Position numbers and translations under genes: made by a program
The notes under the pieces: generated by a model
The model's input: the letters and a program-made list of their open reading frames with translations, nothing else
The model's database searches: none
Told to the model about the DNA's origin: nothing
NCBI RefSeq assembly: GCF_031583025.1
Contig: NZ_CP134062.1
Span: 4,464,001 to 4,528,000 of the forward strand
DNA: 64,000 bases
DNA from: Mycobacterium sp. Z3061
GTDB taxonomy: Bacteria; Actinomycetota; Actinomycetes; Mycobacteriales; Mycobacteriaceae
Reading direction: 5' to 3'
Shown here: positions 1 to 48,003 of the stretch, in pieces
Layout: each line of letters begins with the position of its first letter
Numbering within the stretch: position 1 is the first letter of the stretch

Positions 1-241
1 CCTCCCAGCTGGTTTCGGTCAGCACTCCCTCACGCCGGACGAGGGGCCCGGTCAACCGGTCGGGATCGTTATCGAGCTCGCCGAAGCTCGCGCCCTTCGG
101 ACAGATGAAACCCGCACTGAACACGTCATCACGGTCGCCGCGAGCACCGACCACCCGGCCGTCGACGATGGTCAGTGTCAGGCCGCAGGTCGCCTCGCAC
201 AGCGGGCAGATCCGCAACGCTGTCCCGGTTTCTGCTGTCAT
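1..241 (-). CDS. Molybdopterin-dependent oxidoreductase, N-terminal fragment
   Basis: The gene runs off the left edge of the window, so only about 80 N-terminal residues are visible. They carry the four-cysteine [4Fe-4S] signature of the Mo-bis-MGD oxidoreductase family (CPLCEATC, then CPKG about 35 residues on), followed by the usual stretch DNDPDRLTGPLVRR. Such enzymes bind an iron-sulfur cluster and two molybdopterin guanine dinucleotides and oxidise or reduce small molecules; the substrate cannot be read from this part. I chose the ATG at 241 because an AAGGAG ribosome site lies about 7 bases before it. The frame stays open upstream to an ATG near 394, but that extension does not look like protein of this family. 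Confidence 0.85.
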   Translation of the reverse strand, partial: MTAETGTALRICPLCEATCGLTLTIVDGRVVGARGDRDDVFSAGFICPKGASFGELDNDPDRLTGPLVRREGVLTETSWE

Positions 242-459
242 GCCAGCTCCTTCCCAGGTCCGTTTTGGGCACTTGGTCCCTTGTTCGCAGCAACGAACGC
301 TCCGTTCACGCACCTCTCGGCACGGGTCGAAGACGACGCCCGCTGCGGCCAGTTCGTCGAGGCGCTGGGAAACAGTTTCCTCGTCGCCGTTCATGGCCGC
401 GCCCTCGGGTCCGGCGTAGCCAAGGCTGCCGAACGCAGCAATGGCGGGTCGGGCTCACA

Positions 460-1530
460 TCACCCGTCCGAAAGTCTTTGCGCCAAAGCCCACGCCATTC
501 GCGCTAGGGCGCGGTAGCGGTCCCGGACATCCGATGTGCCGGCCCGGGAGTCGGCCGCATTGCCATCGAGCCCGCGCCGCCACACGCCGGCGGTGATGGA
601 GGCAAGGCGGAACATGGAGAACACGATGAAGGCGTCGAGCGACCGGGGTGGCTCCCGGTCCGCATGCCGACAGTAGCTCGCAACGAAGGCTTGCTGATCG
701 GGTATGCCGGTGCCCGTGAGGTCCTGGCCCGCCACGCCCTTGGTGCCGCTGAACTCCGGCGAAAGATGGTAGGTCAGACAGGTATAGCCGACGTCGGCCA
801 ACGGGTGGCCGATGGTCGCCAGTTCCCAGTCCAAGACGGCGACAATTCGCGGCTCGCTCGGATGAATCAAGACGTTACCCAGGCGGTAGTCGCCGTGCGC
901 GATGCACGCCGGCTCATCGTCCGATGGCAGGTGTTCTGGCAGCCATTGCGCCAGCATGTCCATCGCCGGCATGTCTTCCACGCGCGCGCCCTGCCACTGC
1001 CGCGTCCACAGCGCCACCTGACGCTGCAGGTATCCCTCCGGCCGGCCGAACCCCTCCAGTCCTGCCGCACGCCAGTCCACACCATGCAGCGCGGCAAGCA
1101 CCCGAGCAAGGTCCTCGTAGATCGCCTCCCGCTGCGCCGGACTGCTGTTCGGCAGGGCTGGGTCGTGAAAGATGCGTCCGGGGACGTGATCCATGATGAA
1201 AAAAGCTGTGCCAATGACGGATTCGTCGTTGCACATCAGCCGCATGCGGGGCACCGGCACATCGGTGTCGCGCAGCGCCGACATCACGCGGTGTTCGCGT
1301 TCCACGTCATGCGCCCGCGGCAACAGCGTTCCTGGAGGCTTTTTGCGAAGGACGTACTCGCCCTCGGCGGTGTGCAGGTGGAATGTCGGGTTGCTCTGTC
1401 CGCCTTGAAACTGGCGAACCCTCAGTGGACCGTCGAAGCCTGGCAGTTGGCCGCGCAGGTGCCGTGCGAGGGCGGCCTCATCAAAGCGGTGCGCCGGCAG
1501 CACCGGTACCAGTTCTGCAACACCGTCCAT
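460..1530 (-). CDS. Phosphotransferase family protein (APH-like, FadE-associated)
   Basis: A 356-residue protein of the aminoglycoside phosphotransferase/choline kinase fold. Visible motifs are a nucleotide-binding N-lobe with EYVLRKKPPG, the catalytic loop HGDYRLGN and the metal-binding DWELATIGHPLADVG. The mycobacterial and metazoan (ACAD10/11-like) members carrying these exact motifs are normally encoded beside acyl-CoA dehydrogenases and are thought to phosphorylate hydroxy-acyl substrates. That role is family knowledge; no dehydrogenase gene is adjacent here. The open frame reaches 1641, but residues before the methionine at 1530 are arginine-rich and unlike the family, so I start at MDGVAELVPV. 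Downstream on the same strand is the molybdopterin enzyme. Confidence 0.85.
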   Translation of the reverse strand: MDGVAELVPVLPAHRFDEAALARHLRGQLPGFDGPLRVRQFQGGQSNPTFHLHTAEGEYVLRKKPPGTLLPRAHDVEREHRVMSALRDTDVPVPRMRLMCNDESVIGTAFFIMDHVPGRIFHDPALPNSSPAQREAIYEDLARVLAALHGVDWRAAGLEGFGRPEGYLQRQVALWTRQWQGARVEDMPAMDMLAQWLPEHLPSDDEPACIAHGDYRLGNVLIHPSEPRIVAVLDWELATIGHPLADVGYTCLTYHLSPEFSGTKGVAGQDLTGTGIPDQQAFVASYCRHADREPPRSLDAFIVFSMFRLASITAGVWRRGLDGNAADSRAGTSDVRDRYRALARMAWALAQRLSDG

Positions 1531-1650
1531 CGGTGCCACATTACCGCCGGACCGACCGAGCGACTGGATGTGCGGTAGGCCGCGTTCGGCACGGCGGGCC
1601 GCATTACGTTGCGGCAGTGCGTGACTGGCGTCAGCCCACACAGACTGCCG

Positions 1651-2703
1651 CTAGGTGCCGACGCCGGTCAGGCCGGCAGCCGACGCAAACGCACGTAGTT
1701 CGCGCTCGATATCGGGACCCGCCGGCTGATACGCCACTTCGGTGACGCCCGATGCGCCTAAAGCGGCGATCTTGCCCGGCAGCGCGTCACGAGTCGCCGT
1801 CAAAGCCATCGAGCTGGCCATCGGGATCAGGCCCGCGACGTGAGGTGCGTCCCGCGGGTTCGCCTCGACGAGATGGCCGGCGTGGATCGCAAGATGCCGT
1901 TCGTGTTGGGGCACAGCCTCAATCGCTTCGCGCCAGTCACGTCCACCGGGCAACGTGTCGACCGCCGCCGCGCCGCCCCGTTCGTACATCGCGTGATAGA
2001 GCACCACAGCGGCCGGGCCGGCGGCCGCGACCACCCGCGGCGACGTCAGATCCTCACCGTCGTCCAGTACGGTGCCGAACGCCAGCAACGCGCGCCAGTC
2101 GGCCGCCCGCACGGCGTCCGGCTGAGGGACGGCCGCGGAGAAGACGCCGTCGCCCAGCTCGGCCGCGACCGCCAACCCTCTGGGACCGTCCGCGCCGATC
2201 AGAATGGGCACATCGAGCGGCCGCCCCGCGCCGAAGCCGGGAAGCTGCAGCATCCGGATCGTGGCGCCGTCCCACTCGGCCGGCTCGCCTGCCAGTAGCG
2301 CCTTGAGACAGCGGACGTACTCAGCGACCCGCCGCCACGGCATCGGTCGCTGCCCCAGCGTGAAGCGCCCCGTGAACCCCGAGCCGATCGCGACGGCCAC
2401 ACGATTGGGTGCCTGATCCGCGAGCTCGGCGATCGCAGCGGCGTTGACCATCGGATGTCGCAGGCTGGGGACAAGCACCCCTGGACCGAGGCCGATGCGA
2501 GTCGTGCGCTCGGCGCACCGGCCCAGCACCATCCACACGTCGGGGTACAGTGCCGGCGAGTCGTAGAGCCACGCACGTTTGTAGCCCAGCTCTTCAGCCA
2601 GCTCGACGTGGTTGGGAGTGGTCGACGACGTCGCGAACGCGCAGGAGATCTCCACGTGAGCTGACGGTACTCGCCACGCACCTACGGATCCCGATGTCAC
2701 CAT
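1651..2703 (-). CDS. LLM class (luciferase-like, probably F420-dependent) oxidoreductase
   Basis: A 350-residue TIM-barrel flavin/F420 oxidoreductase. The N-terminus has the typical ELAEELGYKRAWLYDSPALY helix-strand unit. It is followed by RIGLGPGVLVPSLRHP and the AIGSGFTGR phosphate-binding region, and later by DVPILIGADGPRGLAVAAELGDGV. Mycobacteria use many such enzymes with coenzyme F420; the substrate is unknown. The open frame starts at 2820, but the first 39 residues look random, so I use the ATG at 2703; a GTG just before VEISCAF is a shorter alternative. The gene lies 120 bases upstream of the phosphotransferase on the same strand and may share its transcript. Confidence 0.8.
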   Translation of the reverse strand: MVTSGSVGAWRVPSAHVEISCAFATSSTTPNHVELAEELGYKRAWLYDSPALYPDVWMVLGRCAERTTRIGLGPGVLVPSLRHPMVNAAAIAELADQAPNRVAVAIGSGFTGRFTLGQRPMPWRRVAEYVRCLKALLAGEPAEWDGATIRMLQLPGFGAGRPLDVPILIGADGPRGLAVAAELGDGVFSAAVPQPDAVRAADWRALLAFGTVLDDGEDLTSPRVVAAAGPAAVVLYHAMYERGGAAAVDTLPGGRDWREAIEAVPQHERHLAIHAGHLVEANPRDAPHVAGLIPMASSMALTATRDALPGKIAALGASGVTEVAYQPAGPDIERELRAFASAAGLTGVGT

Positions 2704-2752
2704 AAGCCGGCGCCGTACACGATTTGAGTAGGGGCGGCCGCAATGCGTTGCG

Positions 2753-4048
2753 CTACACCGCCACGTCCAGGCTGGTGAGCCCGCGTAGCACCGGATTCGT
2801 CCGGTACACCGGCCGGTCATCCACGAGCGAGAGCCCTGGGAAACGCTTCGTCAGCGCGTCGAACGCGAGCCGCGCCTCGAGCCGCGCGAGTGGCGCCCCG
2901 AGGCAGAAGTGCGTGCCGAACCCGAAGGCCAGGTGCGGGTTTGGGACGCGCGCGAGGTCGAGCTGGTCTGGGTCCTTGAACATGTCGGGGTCGTGGTTCG
3001 CCGAGCCGATGCTCACCAGCACGAGCGAGCCCTCCGGGATGACCTGGTCGTCGATCGCGACGTCTTCGAGCGCGACGCGCACCGTCGCCTGCACGGGCCC
3101 GTCGTAGCGGAGCAGCTCTTCGATCGCAGTCGGGAGCAGAGCGGGCTCTTTGCACAGCCGCACCCACTGGTCGGGCTCGCGCAACAGGGCGAGCGTGCCG
3201 TTGCCGATCAAGTTCGTCGTCGTCTCGTGGCCGGCGAGCAGCAGCAGGTTGCCGGTCGCGAGCAGCTCGGCATCGGTGAGCGCGTCGCGCTCCTCCTGGG
3301 CCGCGATCATGGCGCTGATCAGGTCCTCGCGCGGGGCGCGGCGGCGGGCGGCGATGATACCGGCGAGGTAGTCGAAGACCTGGCGCCCGGCCTCCGCACC
3401 GGTTGCGCGTGCCTCGGCGCTTGGCGACGCGAAGCCGTTGATCATCGTGCTCGACCACTGACGGAACTGACGGTGGTCCTCCGCCGGGACGCCGAGCAGC
3501 TCGGCGATCACGATCGCCGGCAGCGGCTCGGCGACGTCGTGAATCAGGTCGAAGGTGCCCTTGGCCTGCGCCTCGTCGGCGAGCTCGCCGACGATCGCCT
3601 CGATGTGGCCGCGCAGCGCGGCGACGCGCTTGGGCGTGAAGGCCTTGTGGACGAGCTTGCGGACGCGCGTGTGGTCAGGCGGGTCCATGACCAGCATCGA
3701 GCGCATGCCAGTTGCGCTCTGGCGCAGAAACTCCGGCATGCGGTCGAGGTTGTCGCGCATGAGCGGCGCCCGCAGCCTCTCGACCGAGAAACGCGGGTCG
3801 CGCAACACCGAGTGGACGTCGTGGTAGCGCGTGAGCATCCACACGCCGGGGCCCGAGTAGTTCGGGACCGGCACCTCGAGCACCGGCCGCACGGTGCGGA
3901 TCACGGAGTACATCGGGTAGGGGTTCTCGAGCGAGCCGGCGCTGCGCAGCGGCAGGAACAGGTCGAAATCAGCGGAGGCGTCCGCAGAAGGAAGGGGTGC
4001 CGACCGGTGGCGAGAGGGCGCCGAGCGCTGCCAGACACGAGACGTCAT
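2753..4048 (-). CDS. Cytochrome P450
   Basis: A 431-residue soluble bacterial P450 monooxygenase. The diagnostic elements are all present: the I-helix oxygen-activation motif LLLLAGHETTTN, the K-helix ExxR (EELLRYDGP), and the heme-binding loop FGFGTHFCLGAPLAR with the axial cysteine at about residue 382. It would use ferredoxin-delivered electrons to hydroxylate a small hydrophobic substrate; none is identifiable and no ferredoxin gene is adjacent. Start at 4048 rather than 4240 because an AGAGGA ribosome site precedes it and the upstream residues are non-homologous. It diverges from the AarF/UbiB gene across 139 bases. Its codon choice favours CTC and CGC more than its neighbours, which by eye suggests acquisition from another actinobacterium. 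Confidence 0.95.
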   Translation of the reverse strand: MTSRVWQRSAPSRHRSAPLPSADASADFDLFLPLRSAGSLENPYPMYSVIRTVRPVLEVPVPNYSGPGVWMLTRYHDVHSVLRDPRFSVERLRAPLMRDNLDRMPEFLRQSATGMRSMLVMDPPDHTRVRKLVHKAFTPKRVAALRGHIEAIVGELADEAQAKGTFDLIHDVAEPLPAIVIAELLGVPAEDHRQFRQWSSTMINGFASPSAEARATGAEAGRQVFDYLAGIIAARRRAPREDLISAMIAAQEERDALTDAELLATGNLLLLAGHETTTNLIGNGTLALLREPDQWVRLCKEPALLPTAIEELLRYDGPVQATVRVALEDVAIDDQVIPEGSLVLVSIGSANHDPDMFKDPDQLDLARVPNPHLAFGFGTHFCLGAPLARLEARLAFDALTKRFPGLSLVDDRPVYRTNPVLRGLTSLDVAV

Positions 4049-4187
4049 GGCGGGTTCCTCTGGGCGAGCACAGTGTTGAGAATGACCGACTGACCAGCCA
4101 CAATAACACCGTGCCGACGATCGCCTCAAGCGCGCGCGTAGCGCCTCCCCTGTCTGTACTTCGATAGCAAAGGCGCGCTGCGGCTTC

Positions 4188-5471
4188 GTGATCCGGCACT
4201 TCCGAATTGTCCGAGTCCTGCGCGTGGCGCTTGCGGTCATGCGTGTCCTGCCCCGCTACCTGCTGCTTCTGGCGCGCGATCGCACCGCGCTGTGGCCGAC
4301 GAACGACGCCGACTGGCAGCGCGCGCACGGCGCAGCGGCCCGCGAGATCAAGCGCGTCGCGTTATCGCTGGCCGGCGCCTTCACGAAGGCCGCCCAGATC
4401 CAGGGAGCGCGGGCCGACTTCTTCCCGGCGCCCTTCATCGAGGAACTGAGCCAGTTCCACGACGCAGTGCCGCCGCGCCCCTTCGAGACCCTGCGGCCGC
4501 TCGTCGAGCGGGACCTCGGCCGGCCCCTTGACGAGGTCTTCGCGACGATCGACCGCCGGGCCCTCGCCGCGGCTTCGTTGGCGCAGGTGCACCGCGCGAC
4601 GCTGCGCGACGGCAGCCAGGTCGTCCTGAAGATCCGCTATCCCGAGATCCCGAGGATCATTCCGCTCGACCTCGGCATGCTGCGCCGCGTCGTCAGGATC
4701 GTCATGCTCGTGCAGCGGCGCATCGACCTGCGAGCGCTCGCCACCGAGACGACCCGCTTCATCGAGCTTGAACTCGACTTCCGGCGCGAGGTGCGCTCGA
4801 CCGAGCGGCTCGCGAAGAATCTCACTGACGTCCCGTTCGTGGTCGTCCCACGCGTCCATCTGGAGCTGTGCGGCGACAACGTGATCGTGCTCGAGTACCT
4901 GCAAGGCATTCAGGTCGCGCGCACGAAAGAGCTTGTCGCGGCAGGCCACAAGCTCGCGGAGATCGCGCGCAAAATCGGCGCGCTCTACGGCACCATGATC
5001 TTCGAACAGGGCTTCTTCCACGGCGATCCGCACCCCGGGAATCTACTGATACTGCCCGACGGCCGCATCGGCCTCCTCGATTTCGGCTTGGCCAAGGAGC
5101 TGCCACCAGGATTCGCGCGGCTCGTCGCGACGATGATGGTCTCCGCGATGATCGGCGACTCGCGATCCGCGTTCGCCGCGGCCGAGCAGCTCGGCTTCGA
5201 CGTCGCCTCGATGAGCCCCGACAACTTGCGCACGCTGATGCTGATGACGATCGGCGACAGCGACACCGAGGCCGGCTTCTTCGAGATCCTGGGCGAGACG
5301 AGCCTGCGCAAGATCCCGGAGGACTTCGCGCTCGTCGGGCGCACGCTGATCCTGCTCAACGGGCTCTCGCACCGACTCGCGCCCGGGCGCCGGCTGATCC
5401 AGGCCGAGCTGCTGAAGCACCTCGCCGCGGGCGCAGCCAGCGCGGACGATTCGGCGCGCAAGCCCGCCTAG
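4188..5471 (+). CDS. ABC1/AarF (UbiB-like) atypical kinase family protein
   Basis: A 427-residue member of the AarF/ADCK/UbiB family of atypical kinase-like proteins. Landmarks: the family-specific KxGQ region appears as KAAQIQGARADFFP (an alanine-rich variant of the canonical motif), then the alanine-rich nucleotide loop AAASLAQVH, the lysine strand VVLKIRYPEI, the catalytic loop HGDPHPGN and the metal motif LLDFGLAKEL. Family members support ubiquinone or other isoprenoid-lipid metabolism, often as ATPases. A role with the divergent P450 is only inferred from proximity. The start is a GTG; the ATG about 50 bases downstream (MRVLPRYLLL) is also possible. Codon use resembles that of the P450. 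Confidence 0.88.
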   Translation: MIRHFRIVRVLRVALAVMRVLPRYLLLLARDRTALWPTNDADWQRAHGAAAREIKRVALSLAGAFTKAAQIQGARADFFPAPFIEELSQFHDAVPPRPFETLRPLVERDLGRPLDEVFATIDRRALAAASLAQVHRATLRDGSQVVLKIRYPEIPRIIPLDLGMLRRVVRIVMLVQRRIDLRALATETTRFIELELDFRREVRSTERLAKNLTDVPFVVVPRVHLELCGDNVIVLEYLQGIQVARTKELVAAGHKLAEIARKIGALYGTMIFEQGFFHGDPHPGNLLILPDGRIGLLDFGLAKELPPGFARLVATMMVSAMIGDSRSAFAAAEQLGFDVASMSPDNLRTLMLMTIGDSDTEAGFFEILGETSLRKIPEDFALVGRTLILLNGLSHRLAPGRRLIQAELLKHLAAGAASADDSARKPA

Positions 5472-5559
5472 TCCTGAGGTTTGGCGGGGCCAATCGGGTG
5501 ATGAAATACCTAGTGGGGCTCCAAAATTCGAGACATGCGGCGTGCTTGGCGGTGCCGAC

Positions 5560-6990
5560 CTACCGATAGCGCCAGACGCCAACGTGACCGTCGACCCCTT
5601 TGAGAGCCGCCATCTCGCGCGCGCCCACTGGGCTCAGTTCGGTTATCACCTCGGCCGCACCCGGCGCGTCGCGCACATCGTCGGTGCAGACGATCTGGCG
5701 CGAGTCCGCGATCGCCTGCACGCGCGCCGCGATGTTCACCGTCTGGCCGAAATAGTCGAGGCGCTCGTTCAGGTCCACCGCGATGCACGGGCCGGCATGG
5801 AGGCCGATCTTGAGCTCGAGATCGCCAACCCTGCCGACTTCGCGGTTCATCACCATGGCCGCTTCCAGCGCCGGCGCCGGCGTCGGGAAACTCGCCATCA
5901 CCGCGTCGCCGATAGTCTTGACCACCGCGCCGCCGCGAGCGGCGACCACCTCGCGCAAAATGCCGAAGTGTTCGCCGACGAGGGCGTAGGCACGCATGTC
6001 GCCCATGCGCGAGTACAACTCGGTCGAGCCCTTGAGATCGGTGAAGAGCACGGTCAGGTTCTTCAGCGCCAGGCCACCCTGCGCCGGAATGCTCTCGGCG
6101 CGAAACAGATCCCGGAACGCTTGAGTGGTTACCAGCTCCTTGACCGAAAAGAACCGGTGGAACTTCTCGCCGGATTGCCCAGCCAACAAATCGAGTTTCG
6201 CGGCGAGCGCCTCCGGCGAGGACGGGCGCGGGTCGGTGAAGGCTCCGAAGACCACTGGCCGGCTGAGCCGGTTGTGCAGTGTCATGTGCACTTGGCCGGC
6301 CGCAAGCCGGTCACCATCCTGGACGAGCTCGCCCCCGGCGAGGACCTCGTAGTCCAACGTCGAACCGCCCGCTTTTTCTTCGACCGTGAAGCGTCGCAAC
6401 GAGTGGTACTGCGGCAGCGCCAGCACGTAATGCCCTGGCGCGAGCGACGTCTCGGTCTCCAGCTTCGCGCCCGCCGGAGCGGTACCGAACCACACGGGCT
6501 TTTCCACGGCGCGGTCGATGTGCGTTCTGTCAGCGACGCTTGGCGAGAAGAACAGTGTGAGGCTGTCGCGTAGGAAGTCGAGCTTCTCCGAGTCGTGGAA
6601 GCGGATCACGCGCGCCGATGGCGCGACATTGAAAGTGACCTCCACGTTGTCGTCGATCACCGGCGGCACGGCGATCTCGCAGATCGTGCAGAAGCGGTCC
6701 TCGCTGAGCGCGCGCAGCGCATGGTCGGTGGTGATGAACGACCCGCAGGCCGGGCAGATTACCCCCCAACTGAATTCGACCACCCCCGCATGCGCCGCAT
6801 GGAGGAACAGGTCTACCGCCAAGCGCTCAGGCGTGCCCGTCTCCCTCGCGTAGCGATAGGGGTTCATTCGGAAGAGCTTCTCGTCGGGCGCCTCGGCGAT
6901 GTAGCGGGCAAAGCTGTCTACGGCAGTTGCGTCGAAGTGGCCAACGTTCTTGACGGCCGCAAGGCGGCTCTGGAGGACAGCGGTGGTCAT
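5560..6990 (-). CDS. Class III adenylate cyclase with N-terminal zinc-ribbon/DUF5939-type region
   Basis: A 476-residue soluble cyclase that makes cAMP from ATP. The catalytic domain occupies about residues 308-476 and keeps all six expected residues: metal-binding D318 (LFTDLKGST) and D362, adenine-selecting K358 (VKTIGD) and D412 (LDYFGQ), and transition-state N419 and R423 (VNIAARVQ). The long N-terminal part matches in layout the DUF5939 region of related cyclases. It contains two CxxC pairs, C79/C82 and C101/C104, that could form a zinc ribbon. There are no membrane segments. The gene converges on the AarF gene and shares its atypical composition. The signal that controls it is unknown; a metal, redox or ligand input through the N-terminal region is an inference. 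Confidence 0.92.
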   Translation of the reverse strand: MTTAVLQSRLAAVKNVGHFDATAVDSFARYIAEAPDEKLFRMNPYRYARETGTPERLAVDLFLHAAHAGVVEFSWGVICPACGSFITTDHALRALSEDRFCTICEIAVPPVIDDNVEVTFNVAPSARVIRFHDSEKLDFLRDSLTLFFSPSVADRTHIDRAVEKPVWFGTAPAGAKLETETSLAPGHYVLALPQYHSLRRFTVEEKAGGSTLDYEVLAGGELVQDGDRLAAGQVHMTLHNRLSRPVVFGAFTDPRPSSPEALAAKLDLLAGQSGEKFHRFFSVKELVTTQAFRDLFRAESIPAQGGLALKNLTVLFTDLKGSTELYSRMGDMRAYALVGEHFGILREVVAARGGAVVKTIGDAVMASFPTPAPALEAAMVMNREVGRVGDLELKIGLHAGPCIAVDLNERLDYFGQTVNIAARVQAIADSRQIVCTDDVRDAPGAAEVITELSPVGAREMAALKGVDGHVGVWRYR

Positions 6991-7531
6991 GGCACCTCCG
7001 GGACTGGCGCTGGCTGGGACGACCGAATTCGCGCGCTAGGCCACTGAGAACAGTGCACCGCACCTTCTTATTCCGTGATCGCCCCCGACGAAGTGTGATC
7101 CATACCGGGAGGATTAGACATCCGGCAACTCCGCGCCTGCACGAATCGGACCCGGAGTTGGTGGCCGGCACGAAAACGGCACGGCTTTCTGAGAGGGTCT
7201 GGCCGCGCAGGCGGCGGCCCCGGCAAGTTATCCGCCGAGCTTGGTCCGCAGATATTCGATGAGCGCGAGCCCAATATCCGCGGGGGTGTCAACTCGTCTT
7301 ACGTGTGGATCGGTGAGGTTAAGTCTGCGGCGATTGAAGTAGTGGACTACCTAAGTCACCTCCGTCGCTTAGGGCAACGCTTGGGTCGTGCGCGTAACCG
7401 CCCAGCCACACTGAGGAAGACGCCATGACCGCGAAGCGTCAACAACCTCGAATGCAAGCGCATGACTGGCGACGTTCGCGCGCAGACCAAACATTGGAAC
7501 GGGACTGGGCCGACGAGCCGAAGGAGTCGTT
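6991..7531. other. Intergenic region upstream of the PE_PGRS gene
   Basis: About 540 bases without an intact gene, between the divergent cyclase and PE_PGRS genes. It should hold both promoters. The only protein-like stretch I see is a 40-codon fragment on the minus strand, listed separately. The last bases contain the AAGGAG ribosome site of the PE_PGRS gene. Confidence 0.5.
7228..7350 (-). pseudogene. Possible C-terminal remnant of an unidentified gene
   Basis: On the minus strand a 40-codon frame, bounded upstream by a TAG and ending in TAA, reads like a genuine protein tail (HYFNRRRLNLTDPHVRR, then ADIGLALIEYLRTKLGG). It has balanced composition and helix-like periodicity, unlike the other frames here. 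It has no obvious start codon and I do not recognise the family. It may be the relic of a gene truncated when neighbouring DNA was rearranged. Confidence 0.3.
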
Positions 7532-9496
7532 ATGTCGTTCGTGATCGTAACGCCGGATTTTATGACCACGGCCGCAGCGGATTTGGCCCGTATCGAGTCG
7601 GTGCTTCGGGTCGCACATACGGCCGCAGCAACGTCGACGACGCAGGTGCTGGCGGCTGCCGAGGACGAGGTGTCAGCGGCGGTCGCGGCGCTGTTCTCCG
7701 CTCACGGCCGCGAGTACCAGGCGCTCAACGCCCAGGCGACCGCGTTCCATGACGGATTCGCCCGGGCATTGGCCGCAAGCGCCGGTTCGTATGCCAGCGC
7801 GGAGGCCGCCGCCGCCTCGCCGCTGCAGGCTGCGCAGGACGCGGTGCTGGGCGCGATCAATGCACCCTTCCTGACGCTGACCGGGCGCCCGCTGATCGGT
7901 GACGGCGCCAACGGACTGCCAGGTACCGGACAAGCCGGCGGGGCCGGCGGGTGGCTGATCGGCAACGGCGGCAATGGTGGCTCGGGCAAGCCAGGCACGG
8001 GCAACGGCGCTGGCGGTATTGGCGGGGCCGGCGGCGCGGCCGGCCTCTGGGGCCACGGCGGCAATGGTGGCGCCGGGGGAATCGGCGGCTCGTCGGGAGG
8101 GATCGGCGGTAACGGCGGGGCCGGGGGTGCCAATGGGTGGATCGGAGGCGGTAACGGTGGTGCCGGCGGGCCCGGCGGCACCGGTGGGACTGGCGCACCC
8201 GGCGGCAACGGTGGAGTCGGCGGGCCCAACATTCAGCTGTTGTCGTTGAACGGCACTGGTGGTACCGGCGGGGCCGGTGGTAACGGCGGGGCCGGCCATG
8301 CCGGCGTCGACAGCACCGTGGCACAAGGGAACGGCGGTACCGGTTTCGTAGGCGGTGCCGGCGGTCAAGGCGGCGCCGGAGGCGCCAACCAGGCGCTGCT
8401 GGGCGGATCCGGCGGAGCCGGCGGCACAGGCGGCACAGGCGGACTCGGCGGGACGGGTGGTGCGGGCTCGACGCCAGACGCAGCCCACCTCGTGGCTGGT
8501 AATGGTGGCACCGGCGGGGCTGGCGGTGCTGCCGGAGCGGGAGGTGCAGGTGGCGCCGGCGGAATGCTGTTGGGGCACCCCGGCAGCGGCGGCCTAGGCG
8601 GTACCGGCGGTGCGGGCGGCGCCGGCGGCACCGGCGGTGCGGGCAACGCCCACACCGGGTTCAGCTTCGGCGGCGCCGGCGGCAACGGTGGCATCGGCGG
8701 CGCCGGCGGCTTCGGTGGCAACTCCAGCGGCACGGGTATCAACGGCACCGGTGGCGGGGGCGGTGCCGGCGGCGCGGGCGGCACCGGCGGCTACAACATC
8801 GGTGTCTCGGGCACCGGCGACGTGCTCATCGGCGGTGGTGGTGGCGGAGGCGGGGTCGGCGGCCGTGCCGGCAGTGGCGGCACTGGCGGCACCGGCGGCG
8901 GTGGAGGTGGCGGTACCGGCGGCACCGGCGGGGTCGGCGGCACCGGAGGTGGTGCCTTCGAAGTCGACGGCTTGACCTTCCGACTGGCGGCGGGGGGCGG
9001 CCACGGCGGGAGCGGCGGCGCCGGTGCCACCGCTTCCGGGAGCACAGGCGGCTTCGGCGGTGCCGGCGGTGGCGGTGGTGGCGGTGGTGTCACGGATAAC
9101 GGCATCGCTACCGGCGGCGGCGGTGGTGGTGGCGGCGGGGCCGCCACGGCCGGAGGTGTCGGCGGCACAGGCGGTCTGGGCGGTTGGGCCACCTGTGTCG
9201 CGCCCGGAACCGGCCAGGGCGGCAACCCCGGAATTGGCGGAGCCGGCACCGGCGGCGGCGGCGGTGGCGGCGCCTTCGCAATAAACGCGTTCCTTGGCGC
9301 CGGGGTTGCCAACGGCGGAGCCGGCACCGACGGCGCCGCCGGCGGGGCGGGCGGGGCCACCGGCAACAGCGTCGATATCAACATGGGAGGCCGCGGCGGC
9401 AAAGGCGCCATCGTCGGTGTCGGCGGCACCGGAGGCGAAGGCGGTGCCGGCGCCAAATGGTTCGGTGGGGGCGGCGGCCTGAACGGTCAGTTCTGA
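7532..9496 (+). CDS. PE_PGRS family protein
   Basis: A 654-residue mycobacterial PE_PGRS protein. Residues 1 to about 95 form the PE domain (start [11 protein letters not shown], two helices, and SYASAEAA carrying the YxxxE export motif used by ESX-5). A short linker [11 protein letters not shown] follows, as in many PE_PGRS proteins. The remaining 530 or so residues are glycine- and alanine-rich GGX repeats (GGAGG, GGNGG, GGTGG) with a few non-repetitive islands, such as residues 470-490 around [16 protein letters not shown]. Such proteins are exported to the cell surface; individual functions vary and none can be assigned. An AAGGAG site precedes the ATG. PE_PGRS genes are typical of slow-growing species of the tuberculosis/marinum/kansasii lineages. 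Confidence 0.97.
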
Positions 9497-35383: not shown

Positions 35384-35860
35384 ATGACTTCGTCCGCCGC
35401 GGCTAAAGACGCCGGCGTCGCGCACGGTCTGGGAGCCGACCTGCTGGCAGTGGTCGCGCGGTTGAACCGGCTGGCCACCCAGCGCATCCAGATGCCGTTG
35501 CCGTCGGCGCAGGCCAGGTTGCTGGCAACCATCGAAGCTCAGGGGGAAGCCCGCATCGGCGACCTGGCCGCCGTCGACCACTGTTCCCAGCCGACGATGA
35601 CAACCCAGGTGCGCCGACTCGAGGACGCCGGACTCGTGTCGCGCACCATCGACCCGGGTGACGCCCGCGCCGTCCGCATCAAAATCACGCCGAAGGGTGT
35701 GCACACGCTCAACGCGGTGCGCCGGGACCGGGCCGCCGCCATCGAACCGCAACTCGCGCGCCTCGATGCCGCCGACCGTCAGGTGCTGACCGATGCCGTC
35801 GAGGTATTGCGGCGTCTGCTCGAGAACGCCGCCAACGCGCCGGGCCGCCACACACTCTGA
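35384..35860 (+). CDS. MarR-family transcriptional regulator
   Basis: A 158-residue winged-helix repressor. The recognition region is IGDLAAVDHCSQPTMTTQV followed by RRLEDAGLVSR, and the wing is DPGDARAVRIKITPKG. The flanking helices form the dimer interface. It diverges from the ECF transporter genes and most likely controls them and itself through the palindrome at 35355-35371. The ligand is unknown. From memory it corresponds to Rv2327. Confidence 0.9.
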   Translation: MTSSAAAKDAGVAHGLGADLLAVVARLNRLATQRIQMPLPSAQARLLATIEAQGEARIGDLAAVDHCSQPTMTTQVRRLEDAGLVSRTIDPGDARAVRIKITPKGVHTLNAVRRDRAAAIEPQLARLDAADRQVLTDAVEVLRRLLENAANAPGRHTL

Positions 35861-35928: not shown

Positions 35929-38532
35929 GTGACGGCCATCCCTGACGTCTCCCCGTTGACCGTATGGGTCGGATCGGTGCGGTACGTCTTCGCGCCGGGC
36001 CGCGATGTGATCGTGGGACACGGCGGACACTGTGACGTCCGACTGGACCCCGATGGCCCCGGACTTGACGGTGAACCCGTCCCCGACGTGGTGCTGCGCT
36101 TCGCCGGCACCCACTGGCTGGCCGTCGATCAGAGCCACCGAGGCCTGTTCCTCGATGGGATGCGGATGTCGACGATCGACATCCGCGACGGTCAGACGAT
36201 CGCGATCGGCGACCCGCAGCGCGGACCGCGGCTGAGTTTCCAGGTCACCGCTCCTGACGACGCGCCACCGCCCACCACCGATCCGATGGGGGTGAGGACG
36301 CCGGTGCCTCCACCCGTCCCGGCGCCGCCCGATATCCCCGACGAACCCGCCACCACCAGCATCCCCGCCCAACCCGCGGAATTGCCGGCCGAACCCGCCA
36401 CCACCAGCATCCCCGCCCAACCCGCCGAATTCCCGGCCGAACCCGCCACCACCGGCATTCCGGCCGAACCCGCCGACGAACCCGCCACCACCAGCATCCC
36501 CGCCCCACCCACCGAATTCCCGGCCGAACCCGCCACCACCGGCATCCCGGCCCAACCCGCCGACGAACCCGCCACCACCAGCATCCCGGCCCAACCCGCG
36601 GCGGGGTACGGCCCGGTCGAACCTTCCCCGCTGGAAAGACCCACCAGGCCGTTCCGGTACGTCCCGGCGGACGCACCTCCCGTCCTGCCGCCTCCGCACG
36701 ACGCCCCGGCCAAGCTGCCTGGGCTGGTCGAGCGGATGACCGAGGCGGGCCGCAGGATGCTCCCCGGCGGCGACGACAACCCACTCGACGAGCTCCCGCC
36801 CCAGACCAGCCGGTTGCCGCTGCTGCCGGGCGCGCGGACGATCGGCGTGGCCGGTCACCAGCTCGGTCTCACCGTCGATGGCCACGAACTGCTGTCGAAC
36901 GTCACGTTCACGGCACCCCCGGGATCACTGATCGCGGTCGTCGGGCCGACGGCAGCGCGCAATTTCGCACTGACCGGCCTGCTCGCCGGAACCCGCCGGC
37001 TGACCTCAGGTCTACTGACAGTGGACGGCCACGACGTGCACGCCGAGCCCGATGTGCAGCGACTGCGAATCGGTGCGGTGGCGCGCGACAACCGGGTGCA
37101 TCCCCGGCTCACCGTGGAGCGAGCCCTGGAATACGCGGCCGCGCTGCGGTTGCCGCCGGACGCCTCGCCGGAGAACCGGGACCGGGTCGTCCATCAGGTT
37201 CTCGACGAGCTCGAGCTGACCCCGCACCGCACGACCCGGGTCGCCAAGTTGCCCCCCGAAGCGCGCCGGTGCGTGTCGCTGGCGGTCGAGTTGGTCACCA
37301 GGCCGTCGCTGCTGGTGGTCGAGGGGCCGGGAGCCGGGCTGGATCCGGTGCAGGAGAAGCACGTCATGGCGCTGCTGCGCCGGCAGGCCGACCTCGGCTG
37401 CGTGGTGGTGGTGGCCGGCACTTCGCCGGTCTACCTCAACATGTGCGACCAGGTGTTACTGCTCACCCCCGCAGGCCAGTTGGCGTTCGCCGGGCCGCCC
37501 TCGCATATCGACTCGGCGCTGGGCACCACCGACTGGTTCGAAATCTTCGGGCGAATCAGCGCGGACCCGCACGGCGCCCACCACGCCTTCCTGATGCGAC
37601 AGCAGTCTTCGGTCTCGCCGACGCCGCCGTCGGTAGCCAGGCCGCAGCGGCTCGCGCCCGTCCCCGGCTTCGGGCAGCAGTTCCGGCTGCTGGTCCGTCG
37701 TCAGCTGCGACTGCTGTCGTCGAGCCCGGTGTATTCGCTCTTCCTGCTGGCGCTCCCCTTCGTGTTGGGAGCGTTGACATTGTTGATCCCCGGCAATTCC
37801 GGGTTGACCCGGCCCGGCCCGTCGTCTGCCAACGCGCACGAAGCGATCGAGATCCTGGCCGCGCTCAACTTCGCCGCGGTGCTCATGGGCACCACCGTCA
37901 CCATTGGCAGCCTCGTCTCCGAACGCCGGATCTTCCGGCGGGAACAGAGAATCGGATTGTCGGCATCGCCCTACCTACTCGCCAAACTCGCCGTATTCGG
38001 TGTGGTCGCCGCCGCGCAAGCCGCCGTTCTGACCGCCATCGTCATCGTCGGCAAAGGCGGGCCGAAACACGGCGCGGCGCTGCTCGGCACGTCCCCACTG
38101 GCGGCGGGCATCGAGCTTTACGTCAGCGTGGCGGCGACGGCCATTGTCTCGGCGATCGTGGGCCTGGCGCTGTCGTCGCTGGGCAAGTCGATAGCCGAGG
38201 TGGTGCCGCTGTTGATCCCGGCGCTGCTGGCCTCGCTGTTGTTCGCGGGTGGGTTGGCCTCGCTGGGGGGGACCTGGGGCTACGACCAGGTCTCGTGGTT
38301 CATTCCGGCCCAGTGGGGTTTTGCGGCCGCGGCCGCCACGGTGGATTTGCGCCGGATTGACAAGCTGGCGGACCACAACGCGATGTGGAGCCACTACTCG
38401 GGTTGGTGGGTATTCGACATGCTCATGCTCGGGGTCCTCGGCGCGGTGTGGCTCGGGATTGTCCGCTACCGATTGCGTCCGCCGACGGCAGCGCCGCTGC
38501 CTCGCGAGAAGCAGGAAATTGCGCGACCTTGA
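35929..38532 (+). CDS. FHA-domain ABC transporter with degenerate ATPase (Rv1747-like)
   Basis: An 867-residue protein. Residues 8 to about 108 form an FHA domain, a phosphothreonine-binding module. Residues 139-224 are six near-identical repeats around TTSIP/TTGIP. Residues 300-525 resemble an ABCG-type ATPase, and 590-860 hold six hydrophobic segments of an ABC2 permease. The layout resembles Rv1747, which is phosphorylated by PknF, but that protein has two FHA domains. The nucleotide domain appears dead: the Walker A is GPTAARNFA (no lysine, no Ser/Thr), the signature is LPPEARRCVSLA, the Walker B glutamate position is Gly (VVEGPGAGLD, G466), and the switch histidine is absent. The start is a GTG at 35929 after AAAG. 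It may pair with an active subunit or act as a scaffold. Confidence 0.9.
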   Translation: MTAIPDVSPLTVWVGSVRYVFAPGRDVIVGHGGHCDVRLDPDGPGLDGEPVPDVVLRFAGTHWLAVDQSHRGLFLDGMRMSTIDIRDGQTIAIGDPQRGPRLSFQVTAPDDAPPPTTDPMGVRTPVPPPVPAPPDIPDEPATTSIPAQPAELPAEPATTSIPAQPAEFPAEPATTGIPAEPADEPATTSIPAPPTEFPAEPATTGIPAQPADEPATTSIPAQPAAGYGPVEPSPLERPTRPFRYVPADAPPVLPPPHDAPAKLPGLVERMTEAGRRMLPGGDDNPLDELPPQTSRLPLLPGARTIGVAGHQLGLTVDGHELLSNVTFTAPPGSLIAVVGPTAARNFALTGLLAGTRRLTSGLLTVDGHDVHAEPDVQRLRIGAVARDNRVHPRLTVERALEYAAALRLPPDASPENRDRVVHQVLDELELTPHRTTRVAKLPPEARRCVSLAVELVTRPSLLVVEGPGAGLDPVQEKHVMALLRRQADLGCVVVVAGTSPVYLNMCDQVLLLTPAGQLAFAGPPSHIDSALGTTDWFEIFGRISADPHGAHHAFLMRQQSSVSPTPPSVARPQRLAPVPGFGQQFRLLVRRQLRLLSSSPVYSLFLLALPFVLGALTLLIPGNSGLTRPGPSSANAHEAIEILAALNFAAVLMGTTVTIGSLVSERRIFRREQRIGLSASPYLLAKLAVFGVVAAAQAAVLTAIVIVGKGGPKHGAALLGTSPLAAGIELYVSVAATAIVSAIVGLALSSLGKSIAEVVPLLIPALLASLLFAGGLASLGGTWGYDQVSWFIPAQWGFAAAAATVDLRRIDKLADHNAMWSHYSGWWVFDMLMLGVLGAVWLGIVRYRLRPPTAAPLPREKQEIARP
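36343..36600 (+). repeat. Tandem repeat encoding six TTSIP/TTGIP motifs
   Basis: The coding sequence repeats a unit beginning GAACCCGCCACCACC with variable unit length (about 33-57 bases). It encodes PATTSIPAQPAE-like peptides, four with TTSIP and two with TTGIP. It lies in the disordered linker between the FHA and ATPase-like domains. The threonine pairs resemble the FHA-binding phospho-site of GarA (ETTSVF). Confidence 0.85.
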
Positions 38533-43866: not shown

Positions 43867-46800
43867 ATGCGGTCCCCCGACGATGCCGTGCGCACCATGT
43901 GCGCCTACTGCGGCGTCGGCTGCGGAATGGTGTTGCAGATCACCACGGATCCGGAAAGCGGCCGCCGTCACATCGCGAAAACCGTTGGGCAGGAGAATCA
44001 TCCGGCCAACTTCGGCCGATTGTGCACCAAAGGCACGACCACGGCTGACTTTCTGGCCGCCTCGGGACGGGCCGAATCGGCATACGTACGGACCGACCGT
44101 GGTCAGCCGTTTGAACCCATCGAAACCGACACCGCGATCATGCGATCCGCCAAGCGATTACGGGGCATCATCGACAAGCACGGACCGGACGCCGTAGCCC
44201 TGTACGTTTCGGGGCAGATGTCGCTGGAAGCTCAGTATCTGGCGAACAAGCTGGCCAAAGGTTTCATCGGCACCAACCAGATCGAATCCAATTCGCGGCT
44301 GTGTATGGCCGGGGCCAGTTCCGGTTATAAGTTGTCGCTGGGAGCCGACGGACCGCCTGGGTCATACCAGGATTTCGACCACGCCGATGTGTTCTTCGTC
44401 ATCGGCGCCAATATGGCCGACTGCCATCCAATTCTGTTCCTGCGCATGATGGAACGGGTCAAGGCGGGTGCCAAACTGATCGTCGTCGATCCCCGCCGCA
44501 CCGCGACCGCGGCCAAGGCCGACCTTTTCCTGCAGATCGCTCCCGGCTCGGATCTCGCGCTGCTCAACGGGTTACTGCACCTGATCGTGCGCAACGGGCA
44601 CACCGACCCGGACTTCATCGCTGAGTTCACCACCGGCTGGGAGGTGATGCCGGGCTTCCTGGAACAGTTCTCCCCCGAGCGGGTCAGTGAAATCACCGGC
44701 ATTCCGATCGAAGACATCCGCACCGCGGCACAATGGATCGGCGAAGCCGCCAATTGGATGAGCTGCTGGACGATGGGACTCAATCAGAGCACCCACGGCA
44801 CCTGGAACACCAACGCAATCTGCAACCTGCATCTGGCCACCGGTGCGATCTGTAAACCCGGCAGCGGACCGTTCTCGCTCACCGGCCAGCCCAACGCCAT
44901 GGGCGGGCGCGAAATGGGTTACATGGGACCGGGTTTGCCGGGCCAGCGCGCGGTGACCAGCAGCGAGGACCGCGAGTTCACCGAGGACCAGTGGGGCATT
45001 CCCCGCGGGTCGCTGCGCACCGACGTCAGCGACGGTGTGATCGACATGTTCACCCGCATGGCCGACGGTCAAATCAAGGCGTGCTGGATCATCTGCACCA
45101 ATCCCGTTGCCACCGTTGCTAATCGAAAAACGGTGTTGGCCGGTCTGGAGCGGGCCGAGTTGGTGATCACCCAGGACGCGTATCTGGAGACCGAGACCAA
45201 CGAATACGCAGACGTCGTGCTGCCGGCCGCCCTGTGGACGGAGTCCGACGGCGTGATGGTCAACTCCGAACGCAACCTGACCCTGTTCCAACAGGCGGTC
45301 GATCCACCGCCGCAGGCCTTACCGGACTGGCAGATCATCGCCCGAATCGCCTGCGCGATGGGTTTTTCCGACTCGTTCGGCTACTCCTCCGCCGAGGAGG
45401 TGTTCGAGGAGATCAAGCGGTTCGCCAATCCCAGGACCGGCTACGACATCCGTGGCATCAGCTACCCGCGGTTACGCCAGACGCCGGTGCAGTGGCCCTG
45501 CCCGCCCGACAGCACCACCGACCGCAACCCGATCCGCTATCTCAACGACGGGGTCAGCCAGACCCGCCTGGTCCGGGAGGGCGGGCACGTACCCCGGCTC
45601 GCGTTCCCGACTCCGCACGGGCGGGCCGTGTTCTTCGCCCGTCCGCACCTGTCGCCTGAGGAGATGCCGGACAACGATTACCCGTTCCTGCTCAACACCG
45701 GGCGCCTGCCGCACCAGTGGCACACCATGACCAAGACCGGCAAGGTCGCCAAGCTGAACAAGCTCAACCCGGGGCCTTTTGTGGAGATCAACCCGGAAGA
45801 TGCTGTCCGCCAGGATATCTGCGACGGCGACCGGGTTGAGATCGCTTCCCGACGCGGCCGCGCCGTGCTGCCCGCCGTCGTCACCGACCGGGTCCGGCCC
45901 GGCAATTGCTTCGCCCCGTTCCATTGGAACGACACCTTCGGCGAATACCTGTCGATCAACGCGGTCACCAATGACGCCGTAGACCCGGTGTCGCGCCAGC
46001 CGGAGTACAAGGCCTGCGCGGTCACATTGACCAAGGTCGCCGGCCGCACCGCGACGCCGCCCCAGGAGTCGCAGACACCCGACACCGGTCACCCGGCGCC
46101 TCTCGTCAGCCTGTCCCAGATCGACGCGATCGCCGAGTTCCTGGGCGTGGCATCCGAACCCGCGCCCGAGTTCGACCCGAACGGTCGCGCCTACCTGGCG
46201 GGGCTGCTGGCCGGGCTGCGGGTCGAGGCCGGCCGGCCGATGACCGGGTTGCCCACTTTGCCGGTCAGCGCACCGTTCGACATCCGCACCCGGATGTGGC
46301 TGGACGGCGTGATCGCGGGGATGTGCTCACGCACCCCTGCGCCGGCCGCGGAAATCGACACCCACCGCAAGCCCGATGCCGCAGCCGGCCGGCCCGCCGT
46401 CGTGCTGCTGTGGGCCTCCCAGACCGGCAACGCCGAGGAACTCGCGGCCGGCGTGGCCGCGCGCCTTGCTGACGCCGAACTGTCGGTGGCCGTGCACGCG
46501 ATGGACGACTTCCCGGTCGGCGACCTGCCGGGCACGAGCGAGTTACTGCTGATCACCAGCACCACCGGTGACGGCGATCCCCCCGACAACGGCGCCGCCC
46601 TGTGGCGGGCACTCTCGGGCCAGGAAGCGCCCCGGCTGGCCGAGACCCGCTACGCCGTTCTGGCCCTCGGCGACTCCAATTACAACGACTTCTGCGGCCA
46701 CGGACGAAGGCTCGACGAGCGGCTCGCCGAACTGGGCGCGACCCGCATCACCGGCCGCGTCGACTGCGAGCCCGACTACGAAGACGCCGCCGCCCGCTGG

Positions 46801-48003
46801 CTCGACGACATGCTGGGCGCACTGTCGGACACACCCGTCCGCAAGCCCGCGACCGCCACCAGCAGCACGCAGTACTACACCAAAAAGCGGCCCCTGGTCA
46901 CCGATGTGATCCGCAACATCACACTGAGCCGGCCGCAGTCGGCAAAGGACGTCCGCCAGTTGGTCTTTGACCTGCCCGAGGAGACGGTCGACTATCAGGC
47001 CGGCGACGCGCTCGGAGTCTGGCCACACAACAACGAGCAGTGCGTAGACGAATGGCTGACCATCACCGGACTGGACGGACGTACCGAGGTCGAGGTCGCC
47101 GACCACGGCGCGATGTCGTTGCGCACGGCGTTGACCGACCGCTTCGAGATCGCCCACATCAGCCCCGACCTGCTGCGCTTTGTGCAGCAGCGAACGGTCG
47201 ACGCCGGCGCGGCCGCCCGGCTGAGCGAGCTGATGAGAACGGAAAACAAAGCGGCGCTGGCGGATTGGTCCTGGGGACGCCAGGCGGTGGACCTGCTGGC
47301 GCAGGCGCCCGTGCACGCGTCGGTGGACGAGTGGCTGAGCGTGCTCAAACCTCTTCAGCCCCGGCTGTATTCGATTTCGTCGAGCCCCAAAGTGCATCCC
47401 GGCGAGGTCCACCTCACAGTCTCGCCGGTGCGGTACAACTTCCAGGGCGTCCCGCGGCGCGGGGTGTGCTCAACCTATCTGGCCGACCGCGCCCCCCGTG
47501 ACCGCATCGCGGTCTACGTACGGACATCGAAGAACTTCCGGCCTCCCAGCGACCCGCAAACTCCGATGATCATGATCGGCCCCGGCACCGGGATCGCCCC
47601 GTTCCGCGGATTTCTGCAGGAGCGGCGCGCGCTGGGCCACACCGGACCCAACTGGCTGTTCTTCGGCGAGCAGCACGCGGCCACCGACTTCTACTACCGC
47701 GATGAGATCCAGGCCATGCACACCGACGGGTTGCTCACCGAGCTCGACCTGGCATTCTCCCGTGATCAGCGGGAAAAGGTGTACGTGCAGCATTTGATGC
47801 GCAAGCGCGGTGCCGAGCTGTGGAGCTGGCTCCAAGACGGTGCCCAGCTATACGTATGCGGTAGCGCCGACCCGATGGCCAAGGATGTTGACCAGGCAAT
47901 CTGCGATATCGCGGCCGAACACGGCAAACTCGACGCGGAGGCGGCCAGGGCCTTCGTGCAGGCGCTGAGCACTGCCAAGCGCTACCACCGCGATGTGTAC
48001 TGA
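43867..48003 (+). CDS. Assimilatory nitrate reductase fused to a CysJ-like NADPH diaphorase
   Basis: A 1378-residue bifunctional protein. Residues 1 to about 730 form a Mo-bis-MGD nitrate reductase: [4Fe-4S] cysteines C12, C15, C19 and C53, and the NapA/Nas-type molybdenum ligand C146 in [13 protein letters not shown]. After a linker, residues 845-985 are an FMN flavodoxin domain ([34 protein letters not shown]). Residues 1000-1378 are a sulfite-reductase/P450-reductase-type FAD and NADPH module ([32 protein letters not shown]). One chain can thus move electrons from NADPH through FAD, FMN and iron-sulfur to nitrate. The organism then needs nitrite reductase (not in this window). narK nearby supplies nitrate. 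Confidence 0.93.

What the first reader, a model, noticed from the sequence alone, without database searches (positions are those of the whole stretch)
35929..38532. FHA-ABC fusion with an apparently dead ATPase domain
All nucleotide-binding elements are eroded together (Walker A GPTAARNFA, signature LPPEARRCV, Gly for the catalytic Glu, no switch His), yet the rest of the domain and the permease are intact. This suggests selection for a non-catalytic ATPase-like domain that reads phosphothreonine through the FHA module. It could be the inactive half of a heterodimer with an Rv1747-type protein.
Basis: partly seen in the sequence, partly recalled or inferred. Interest (0 to 1): 0.7.

Follow-up and report, generated by a model that had tools for sequence, protein, structure and literature searches.

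The report
Conserved dead ABC transporter in mycobacteria
Many slow-growing mycobacteria carry a membrane pump-like protein that has lost the parts needed to use ATP and to read phosphorylated threonine, yet evolution largely keeps it, which suggests that it has become a regulator or sensor and is not just a worn-out pump.

Summary
The 867-aa ORF is a complete FHA–linker–NBD–permease half-transporter whose Walker A, Q-loop, signature, Walker B and switch-His residues are all changed. It is not simply a decaying copy: of 69 named orthologues none of 68 readable has the Walker A lysine, the NBD–permease frame is open in 68 of 69, and the altered letters are themselves conserved (Arg344 66/68, Cys448 68/69, Cys491 69/69). 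FHA, NBD and permease evolve under purifying selection, and the copies form one supported clade at one syntenic locus. The FHA domain has lost its phosphothreonine residues too (SRxH in place in 0 of 44 readable). And because Walker A and the signature are lost in the same NBD, a heterodimer with a canonical partner would have no intact ATP site, unlike ABCG5/G8 or Pdr5; the 7 FHA-ABC paralogues found in this genome are canonical. Best reading: a pseudo-ABC transporter that regulates or scaffolds active FHA-ABC transporters, or a stand-alone non-ATP-driven sensor. Anatomy well shown; mechanism inferred.

The parts
35929..38532 (+). pseudo-ABC half-transporter gene, 867 aa, GTG start
   Evidence: 68 bp after the stop of marR
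35950..36252 (+). degenerate FHA domain, aa 8-108 (His31 for Arg, no SRxH, Arg71 for Asn)
   Evidence: 6ccd match aa 10-106, 2.8e-9; residue counts
36253..36855 (+). Pro/Ala-rich linker aa 109-309, fast evolving
   Evidence: dN/dS 0.16-0.48 in 14 dead-family pairs with data; alignment
36342..36600 (+). tandem repeat in the linker (EPATTSIPAQPA-like)
   Evidence: TRF period 48 score 288; a period-87 row at 36390-36599 has 94% matches
36856..37518 (+). pseudo-NBD aa 310-530
   Evidence: Pfam ABC_tran; AlphaFold model mean pLDDT 89.1 for the 550-aa NBD+TMD part
36943..36969 (+). Walker A position, GPTAARNFA; Lys -> Asn345, Gly -> Arg344
37084..37086 (+). Q-loop Gln -> Arg386
37249..37275 (+). signature position, LPPEARRCV; contains newly fixed Cys448 (37270-37272)
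   Evidence: C448 68/69, R447 69/69 in the family; Arg and Lys in 12/12 active
37321..37326 (+). Walker B Asp -> Glu465, catalytic Glu -> Gly466
37399..37401 (+). newly fixed Cys491
   Evidence: 69/69 in the family, Arg in 12/12 active
37420..37422 (+). switch His -> Thr498
37666..38478 (+). ABC-2/ABCG-type permease domain aa 580-850, intact
   Evidence: Pfam; Foldseek matches of the NBD+TMD model to ABCG2 and ABCG5/G8
35384..35860 (+). MarR-family regulator next door, conserved neighbour but not dedicated to this gene
   Evidence: neighbour; a match at E<=1e-30 in 110 of 118 genomes

Best explanation
It is a conserved pseudo-ABC transporter. SHOWN: the members of one FHA-ABC (Rv1747-type) clade at the marR locus that were read lack key ATP-site residues, from its early branches on. 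The derived members have also lost the FHA pThr residues, have fixed new residues in the old ATP site (R344/N345, E444-x-R-R-C448, C491), and keep the domains under purifying selection. INFERRED: the protein cannot hydrolyse ATP. Working mechanism: it sits in the inner membrane as an ABCG-like half-transporter, associates with active FHA-ABC paralogues (through NBD/permease dimer surfaces or through linker-FHA clustering of the kind known for Rv1747), and lowers or spatially organises their activity, since mixed dimers would have no complete ATP site. My odds: about 0.95 for 'conserved and non-canonical, not simply decaying', about 0.9 for 'no ATP hydrolysis', about 0.45 for the regulatory/scaffold mechanism. 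The single confidence value given is for the mechanism.
For: Walker A Lys in 0 of 29 orthologues and 0 of 68 readable of 69 named ones, His in 0 of 68 readable, Q-loop Gln in 0 of 69. New letters: R344 66/68, N345 62/68, R447 69/69, C448 68/69, C491 69/69; the 12 active relatives have G, K, K, R, R in 12/12. 13 NBD positions are fixed (95%) for one residue in active and another in dead proteins, on thinned sets of 19 active and 40 dead. NBD-to-permease frame open in 68 of 69. dN/dS in 15 dead-family pairs: NBD 0.04-0.29, TMD 0.05-0.29; FHA 0.03-0.44 in the 10 pairs with FHA data. One clade of 31 rows, 100/99, with active-site columns removed. marR beside the gene in 19 of 20 neighbourhoods fetched from close-orthologue genomes (the 20th, L058, starts at a contig end inside the gene) and in L042-L044, L159, L160. 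NBD+TMD model pLDDT 89.1, ABCG fold. Seven canonical FHA-ABC paralogues in the genome as possible partners. Rv1747 clustering: PMC9312465, passages.
Against: No interaction, expression or activity data exist here. No paralogue read shows a matching change, so a specific partner is not identified. The gene is patchy: 35 of 118 sampled genomes have a match at E<=3.4e-175 (8 candidates scored per genome), two more were found at the locus, and 8 of 16 further marR neighbourhoods (L167-L174) showed no relative at E<=1e-10. Some copies are broken: NBD deleted in L161 and L164; among the 69 named, 3 have a frame break or stop between FHA and NBD (L087, L105, L131) and 2 have no FHA piece found upstream (L085, L114). 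The NBD is less constrained than in active copies (74 versus 106 of 225 positions fixed). Nucleotide binding without hydrolysis is not excluded, because Walker B Asp and Glu remain in many members. A stand-alone homodimer fits the sequence data equally well.
Confidence: 0.45

Rival explanations
1. Stand-alone pseudo-transporter: a homodimer in which the NBDs are a fixed scaffold or sensor, and the permease binds a lipid or other ligand and signals or leaks it without ATP.
For: The permease is constrained at least as much as in active copies (85 versus 71 of 268 TMD positions fixed at 95%; the active set is a mixture of paralogues, so this comparison is loose). New fixed NBD residues at the old ATP interface. 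Two newly fixed Cys.
Against: I recall no ABCG-type homodimer known to work without ATP; no ligand is known; the distance between the two Cys could not be measured (the model tool gave no coordinates).
Confidence: 0.35
2. Inactive half of a productive heterodimeric exporter with an Rv1747-type partner.
For: ABCG half-transporters such as ABCG5/G8 heterodimerise (PMC7756502, passages); canonical FHA-ABC paralogues are present.
Against: Walker A and signature are lost in the same NBD, so both composite sites would be incomplete with a canonical partner. In degenerate transporters the changes are spread over both NBDs so that one site stays canonical (PMC7756269, passages; ABCG5 signature / ABCG8 Walker A, and the same changes in the intact site inactivate, PMC7756502, passages; consensus site of MsRv1273c/72c, PMC12038006, passages). 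The 7 paralogues read are canonical, so none is a matching asymmetric partner.
Confidence: 0.12
3. A decaying copy on the way to loss.
For: Two genomes carry remnants with the NBD deleted (L161, L164) and one lacks the gene at the locus (L162); 3 of 69 named copies have a frame break or stop between FHA and NBD (sequencing error not excluded); NBD dN/dS (0.04-0.29 in 15 pairs) is higher than in 6 active pairs (0.02-0.12).
Against: NBD-to-permease frame open in 68 of 69, one frame from FHA to permease in 43 of 69 with 21 more cut by or beginning near contig ends; purifying selection in all domains and newly fixed residues.
Confidence: 0.06

Closest known systems
Rv1747-type FHA-ABC transporters (Mycobacterium)
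   Same: FHA - linker - NBD - ABC-2 permease order; 44-47% identity over NBD+TMD to the five nearest paralogues in the same genome
   Different: ATP-site and pThr-site residues lost; one FHA found where Rv1747 has two (PMC9312465, passages); neighbour is marR, whereas Rv1747 forms an operon with pknF (PMC3908365, abstract in listing)
ABCG5/ABCG8 and Pdr5 (degenerate-site ABCG-type transporters)
   Same: ABCG fold (for ABCG5/G8); conserved loss of ATP-site residues
   Different: there one composite site stays canonical; here a mixed dimer with a canonical partner would have none and a homodimer has two dead sites
Mycobacterial phosphorylated pseudokinase complex (MviN/FhaA)
   Same: conserved dead enzyme domain tied to FHA signalling (analogy; title seen in a reference list; names and details recalled)
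   Different: unrelated fold; there the FHA partner is said to bind pThr (recalled)
Active FHA-ABC sister group (M. kyorinense, M. celatum and others, L145-L149, L151, L154)
   Same: 48-52% identity, nearest active rows in the tree
   Different: ATP-site residues and SRxH intact in these rows

Membership tests
Functional ABC ATPase | Walker A Lys | tested here: not met
   Asn345; 0 of 68 readable orthologues keep Lys
Functional ABC ATPase | signature LSGGQ | tested here: not met
   LPPEA; first Gly -> Pro443 fixed at 95% in the thinned set, second Gly -> Glu in 61/69
Functional ABC ATPase | catalytic Glu and switch His | tested here: not met
   Gly466 and Thr498; in the family Glu kept 55/69, His 0 of 68 readable
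Functional ABC ATPase | ATP hydrolysis | not testable with these tools
   needs purified protein
ABCG-like half-transporter fold | NBD followed by a helical ABC-2 permease in the ABCG fold | tested here: met
   model pLDDT 89.1, pTM 0.85; best PDB matches ABCG2 and ABCG5/G8, TMq 0.72-0.81 in the 50 rows shown
Rv1747-type FHA-ABC transporter | FHA-linker-NBD-TMD architecture and homology | tested here: met
Rv1747-type FHA-ABC transporter | pThr-binding FHA residues (Arg, Ser/His of SRxH, Asn) | tested here: not met
   44 of 70 readable (window included): SRxH in place 0, Arg 6, Asn 11, Arg and Asn both 2
Rv1747-type FHA-ABC transporter | second FHA domain | tested here: inconclusive
   only aa 10-106 matched (60 of 212 PDB rows shown); the FHA model could not be run
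Asymmetric heterodimer with one canonical site | partner in the genome that complements the lost motifs | tested here: not met
   7 of 7 FHA-ABC paralogues canonical; no pairing restores a whole site
Pseudoenzyme (selected non-catalytic relative) | consistent loss across orthologues under purifying selection | tested here: met

The most novel reading that the evidence does not exclude
A whole ABC exporter family has left ATP behind: the nucleotide site was rebuilt into a new conserved site (A-R344-N345, E444-x-R-R-C448, C491), perhaps redox- or ligand-responsive through the two newly fixed cysteines, so that an ABCG-type permease is gated by something other than ATP.
Probability: 0.25. Interest if true: 0.85.

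Novelty: new variant of a known kind. Interest (0 to 1): 0.6.

Why it matters
A complete ABC half-transporter kept by selection, with neither of its two composite ATP sites able to be canonical either in a homodimer or with a canonical partner, would be a clear case of a pseudo-ABC transporter; the degenerate transporters in the papers seen keep one working site. It occurs in many opportunistic mycobacteria, and the window's genome also holds active Rv1747-like copies, so it offers a testable way in which such transporters might be tuned. Naturally occurring intermediate states (L042, with an intact FHA motif but a dead NBD) allow the order of loss to be studied.

Tried and rejected
Tried and rejected: simple decay (orthologue counts, open frames, dN/dS). 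Misread strand: the first extraction read the minus-strand loci on the wrong strand; redone, and one search is not used. A plasmid-borne copy: the only hit at E<=1e-60 in the plasmid collection (Mycobacterium ulcerans BS123 'unnamed2', linear, NZ_CP083743.1) carries the same gene order as the chromosomal locus, so it looks like a piece of chromosome; its protein also has ARN, RRC and DLGC. A dedicated marR partner: marR is matched in 110 of 118 genomes, the gene in far fewer. Outside the genus: in a scan of 81 genomes, 4 of them in the genus, no out-of-genus match exceeded 46% identity; 11 candidates were scored per genome, and the motifs of those matches were not read. One of 22 dN/dS pairs (L091-L155) mixes a dead and an active protein and was dropped; 15 dead-family and 6 active pairs remain. 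The SRxH count printed 1 hit in 44 (L133, SPGH elsewhere in the loop); I count it as a false match. The automatic sorting put 12 long frames (L082, L093, L100, L104, L106, L109, L117, L121, L137, L139, L140, L142) under 'other' because its FHA hit filter missed them; their FHA is readable in the frame, so I count 31+12=43 full frames. Literature: 10 searches; no listed title or abstract names this family; open-access papers only, and the listed papers were not read through. The FHA structure could not be predicted (queue full each time), and no coordinates were given for the other model, so the Cys448-Cys491 distance is unknown.

Full report
What is there. The ORF at 35929-38532 (+) is open, starts with GTG and encodes 867 residues. 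It has an N-terminal FHA-like domain (aa 10-106 match Rv1747 FHA-1, PDB 6ccd, 2.8e-9), a long Pro/Ala-rich linker with a tandem repeat, an ABC NBD and an ABC-2 permease. An AlphaFold model of aa 306-855 on 67 sequences has mean pLDDT 89.1 and pTM 0.85, and Foldseek places it with human ABCG2 and ABCG5/ABCG8 (E down to 6.8e-23, TMq 0.72-0.81 for these in the 50 rows shown). So the NBD is predicted to fold as an NBD even though its ATP site is changed. The FHA part could not be modelled (queue).

Where it is. The host genome is 6.79 Mb in one contig. A genome labelled 'same species' has a contig of the same length as one of M. gordonae CTRI 14-8773, and the protein there is 96% identical over the part held, so the window is M. 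gordonae or very near it (inference). The genome has seven more FHA-ABC proteins (119 candidates scored), with intact Walker A, Q, LSGGQ, Asp-Glu and His in 7 of 7. In the first FHA of two of them (L003, L004) the Arg and Asn are also changed.

The loss is family-wide. In 118 genomes of the genus, 35 have a match at E<=3.4e-175 (counted from its listing; 8 candidates scored per genome). The 29 orthologues read (L013-L041) lack the Walker A Lys, 29 of 29. A scan of named genomes kept the best 80 of 400 relatives; 69 belong to this family and 11 are canonical (split by motif and identity; these sets share genomes). One of the 69 lacks the Walker A stretch (contig start); of the other 68, none has Lys. 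Q-loop Gln is in 0 of 69, switch His in 0 of 68 readable. Walker B Asp is kept in 65 and catalytic Glu in 55 of 69, so the Gly of the window is a local change (7 of 69).

Frames. Of the 69, 68 have the NBD-to-permease part in one open frame (the other starts at a contig end). 43 have one open frame from FHA to permease, 21 are cut by or begin near a contig end, 3 have a frame break or stop between FHA and NBD (L087, L105, L131), and in 2 no FHA piece was found upstream (L085, L114) (with for 12 frames that its filter missed). So the part from NBD to permease is kept more faithfully than the FHA.

New residues are fixed. In the same 69, Arg344 is in 66/68 and Asn345 in 62/68; Arg447 in 69/69; Cys448 in 68/69; Cys491 in 69/69. 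The twelve active relatives compared (11 named plus L002) have Gly, Lys, Lys, Arg, Arg at these places, 12 of 12. After thinning (40 dead, 19 active), 13 NBD positions are fixed at 95% for one residue in the active and another in the dead group. Overall the dead NBD has fewer fixed positions than the active (74 versus 106 of 225), and the permease more (85 versus 71 of 268). Some positions that served catalysis (switch His, last signature residue) drift. This pattern suits a changed function better than free decay.

Selection. Among 15 dead-family pairs, dN/dS was 0.04-0.29 for the NBD and 0.05-0.29 for the permease, and 0.03-0.44 for the FHA domain in the 10 pairs with data (the highest has very low dS). 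Six active pairs gave 0.02-0.12 for the NBD and 0.10-0.27 for the permease (own NG86 script). So the NBD has lost its extra constraint but is still held like the permease.

Order of events. Neighbouring genes are conserved: the ecfT/ecfA-like pair on one side, marR directly upstream, acyl-CoA dehydrogenase beyond (gene names or by recall). Early branches at the same locus (L042, L043, L044, L159, L160) lack the Walker A Lys and the switch His, 5 of 5, but with different letters (GPSAARNTA, GPSPAAGCA, GPSPAAASA, GPTGAALSA, GLSEASTSA); L043 still has the Q-loop Gln and Asp-Glu, and L042 still has the FHA motif. The tree with active-site columns removed joins L042-L044 and the derived family in one group of 31 rows (100/99), next to canonical transporters; its root is at the midpoint, for drawing only (L159 and L160 were not in that tree). 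The simplest order is: Walker A, signature and His first, FHA pThr site next, Walker B last (inference). Two genomes have copies with the NBD deleted (L161, L164), one is rearranged at a contig end (L165) and one has no gene at the locus (L162), so it is dispensable in some lineages.

The FHA domain. The residues reported for Rv1747 FHA-I are Gly32, Arg33, Ser47, His50, Asn69 (PMC5549992, passages). In 44 members readable of 70 (window included), Arg is kept in 6, Asn in 11, both in 2, and SRxH in place in none (one printed hit is a false match); in 12 active proteins the counts are 11, 12 and, for SRxH, 12. Phosphothreonine reading is therefore not supported for this protein, though binding was not tested.

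The heterodimer idea. [quoted passage not shown] In ABCG5/G8 the degenerate signature is in ABCG5 and the degenerate Walker A in ABCG8, so one site stays whole, and putting the same changes in the intact site inactivates the transporter (PMC7756502, passages). Here both are in one NBD. With a canonical partner neither site would be whole. A mixed dimer should then be inactive, which suits a brake better than a pump. This is inference from sequence.

Mechanism. I favour a regulatory or scaffold role on the active FHA-ABC transporters, because they are present in the same genome, share the fold, and Rv1747 itself is controlled by phosphorylation and clustering (PMC9312465, PMC7761784, passages). 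A stand-alone non-ATP-driven homodimer is nearly as likely. No tool here could tell them apart.

Comparison with M. tuberculosis is by recall only: I recall the order Rv2326c, Rv2327, PE23, narK1, lppP at this place, without this gene. No call tested that genome by name. The M. ulcerans record does carry the gene, and its ATP site is changed too.

Noticed in passing
window 35950-36252: The FHA-like region also matches the NCBIfam model of EspM, an ESX-1 transcriptional regulator (1.7e-11, below its whole-protein cut-off), so EspM may carry an FHA-like N-terminus.
   Followed up: no
window 36342-36600: The linker repeat varies between close relatives, and several draft assemblies break inside this gene (L014, L030, L032, L033, L037, L038, L041 have frames that begin at a contig end).
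   Followed up: partly
L161 6060-6809; L164 5650-6961: Two genomes have the NBD deleted, leaving FHA and permease pieces at the locus.
   Followed up: partly
L087, L105, L131: Three named copies have a frame break or stop between FHA and NBD; sequencing error not excluded.
   Followed up: partly
L177 (NZ_CP083743.1 64946-82739): A linear 'plasmid' record of Mycobacterium ulcerans BS123 carries the conserved chromosomal gene order, so it may be a mislabelled chromosomal piece.
   Followed up: partly
window 43867-48003: A 1378-aa ORF looks like a molybdopterin oxidoreductase fused to a flavodoxin/FAD reductase (label from reading the sequence, not from a search).
   Followed up: no
L003, L004: Two paralogues of the window genome have changed Arg and Asn in the first FHA but intact ATP-site residues.
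   Followed up: no
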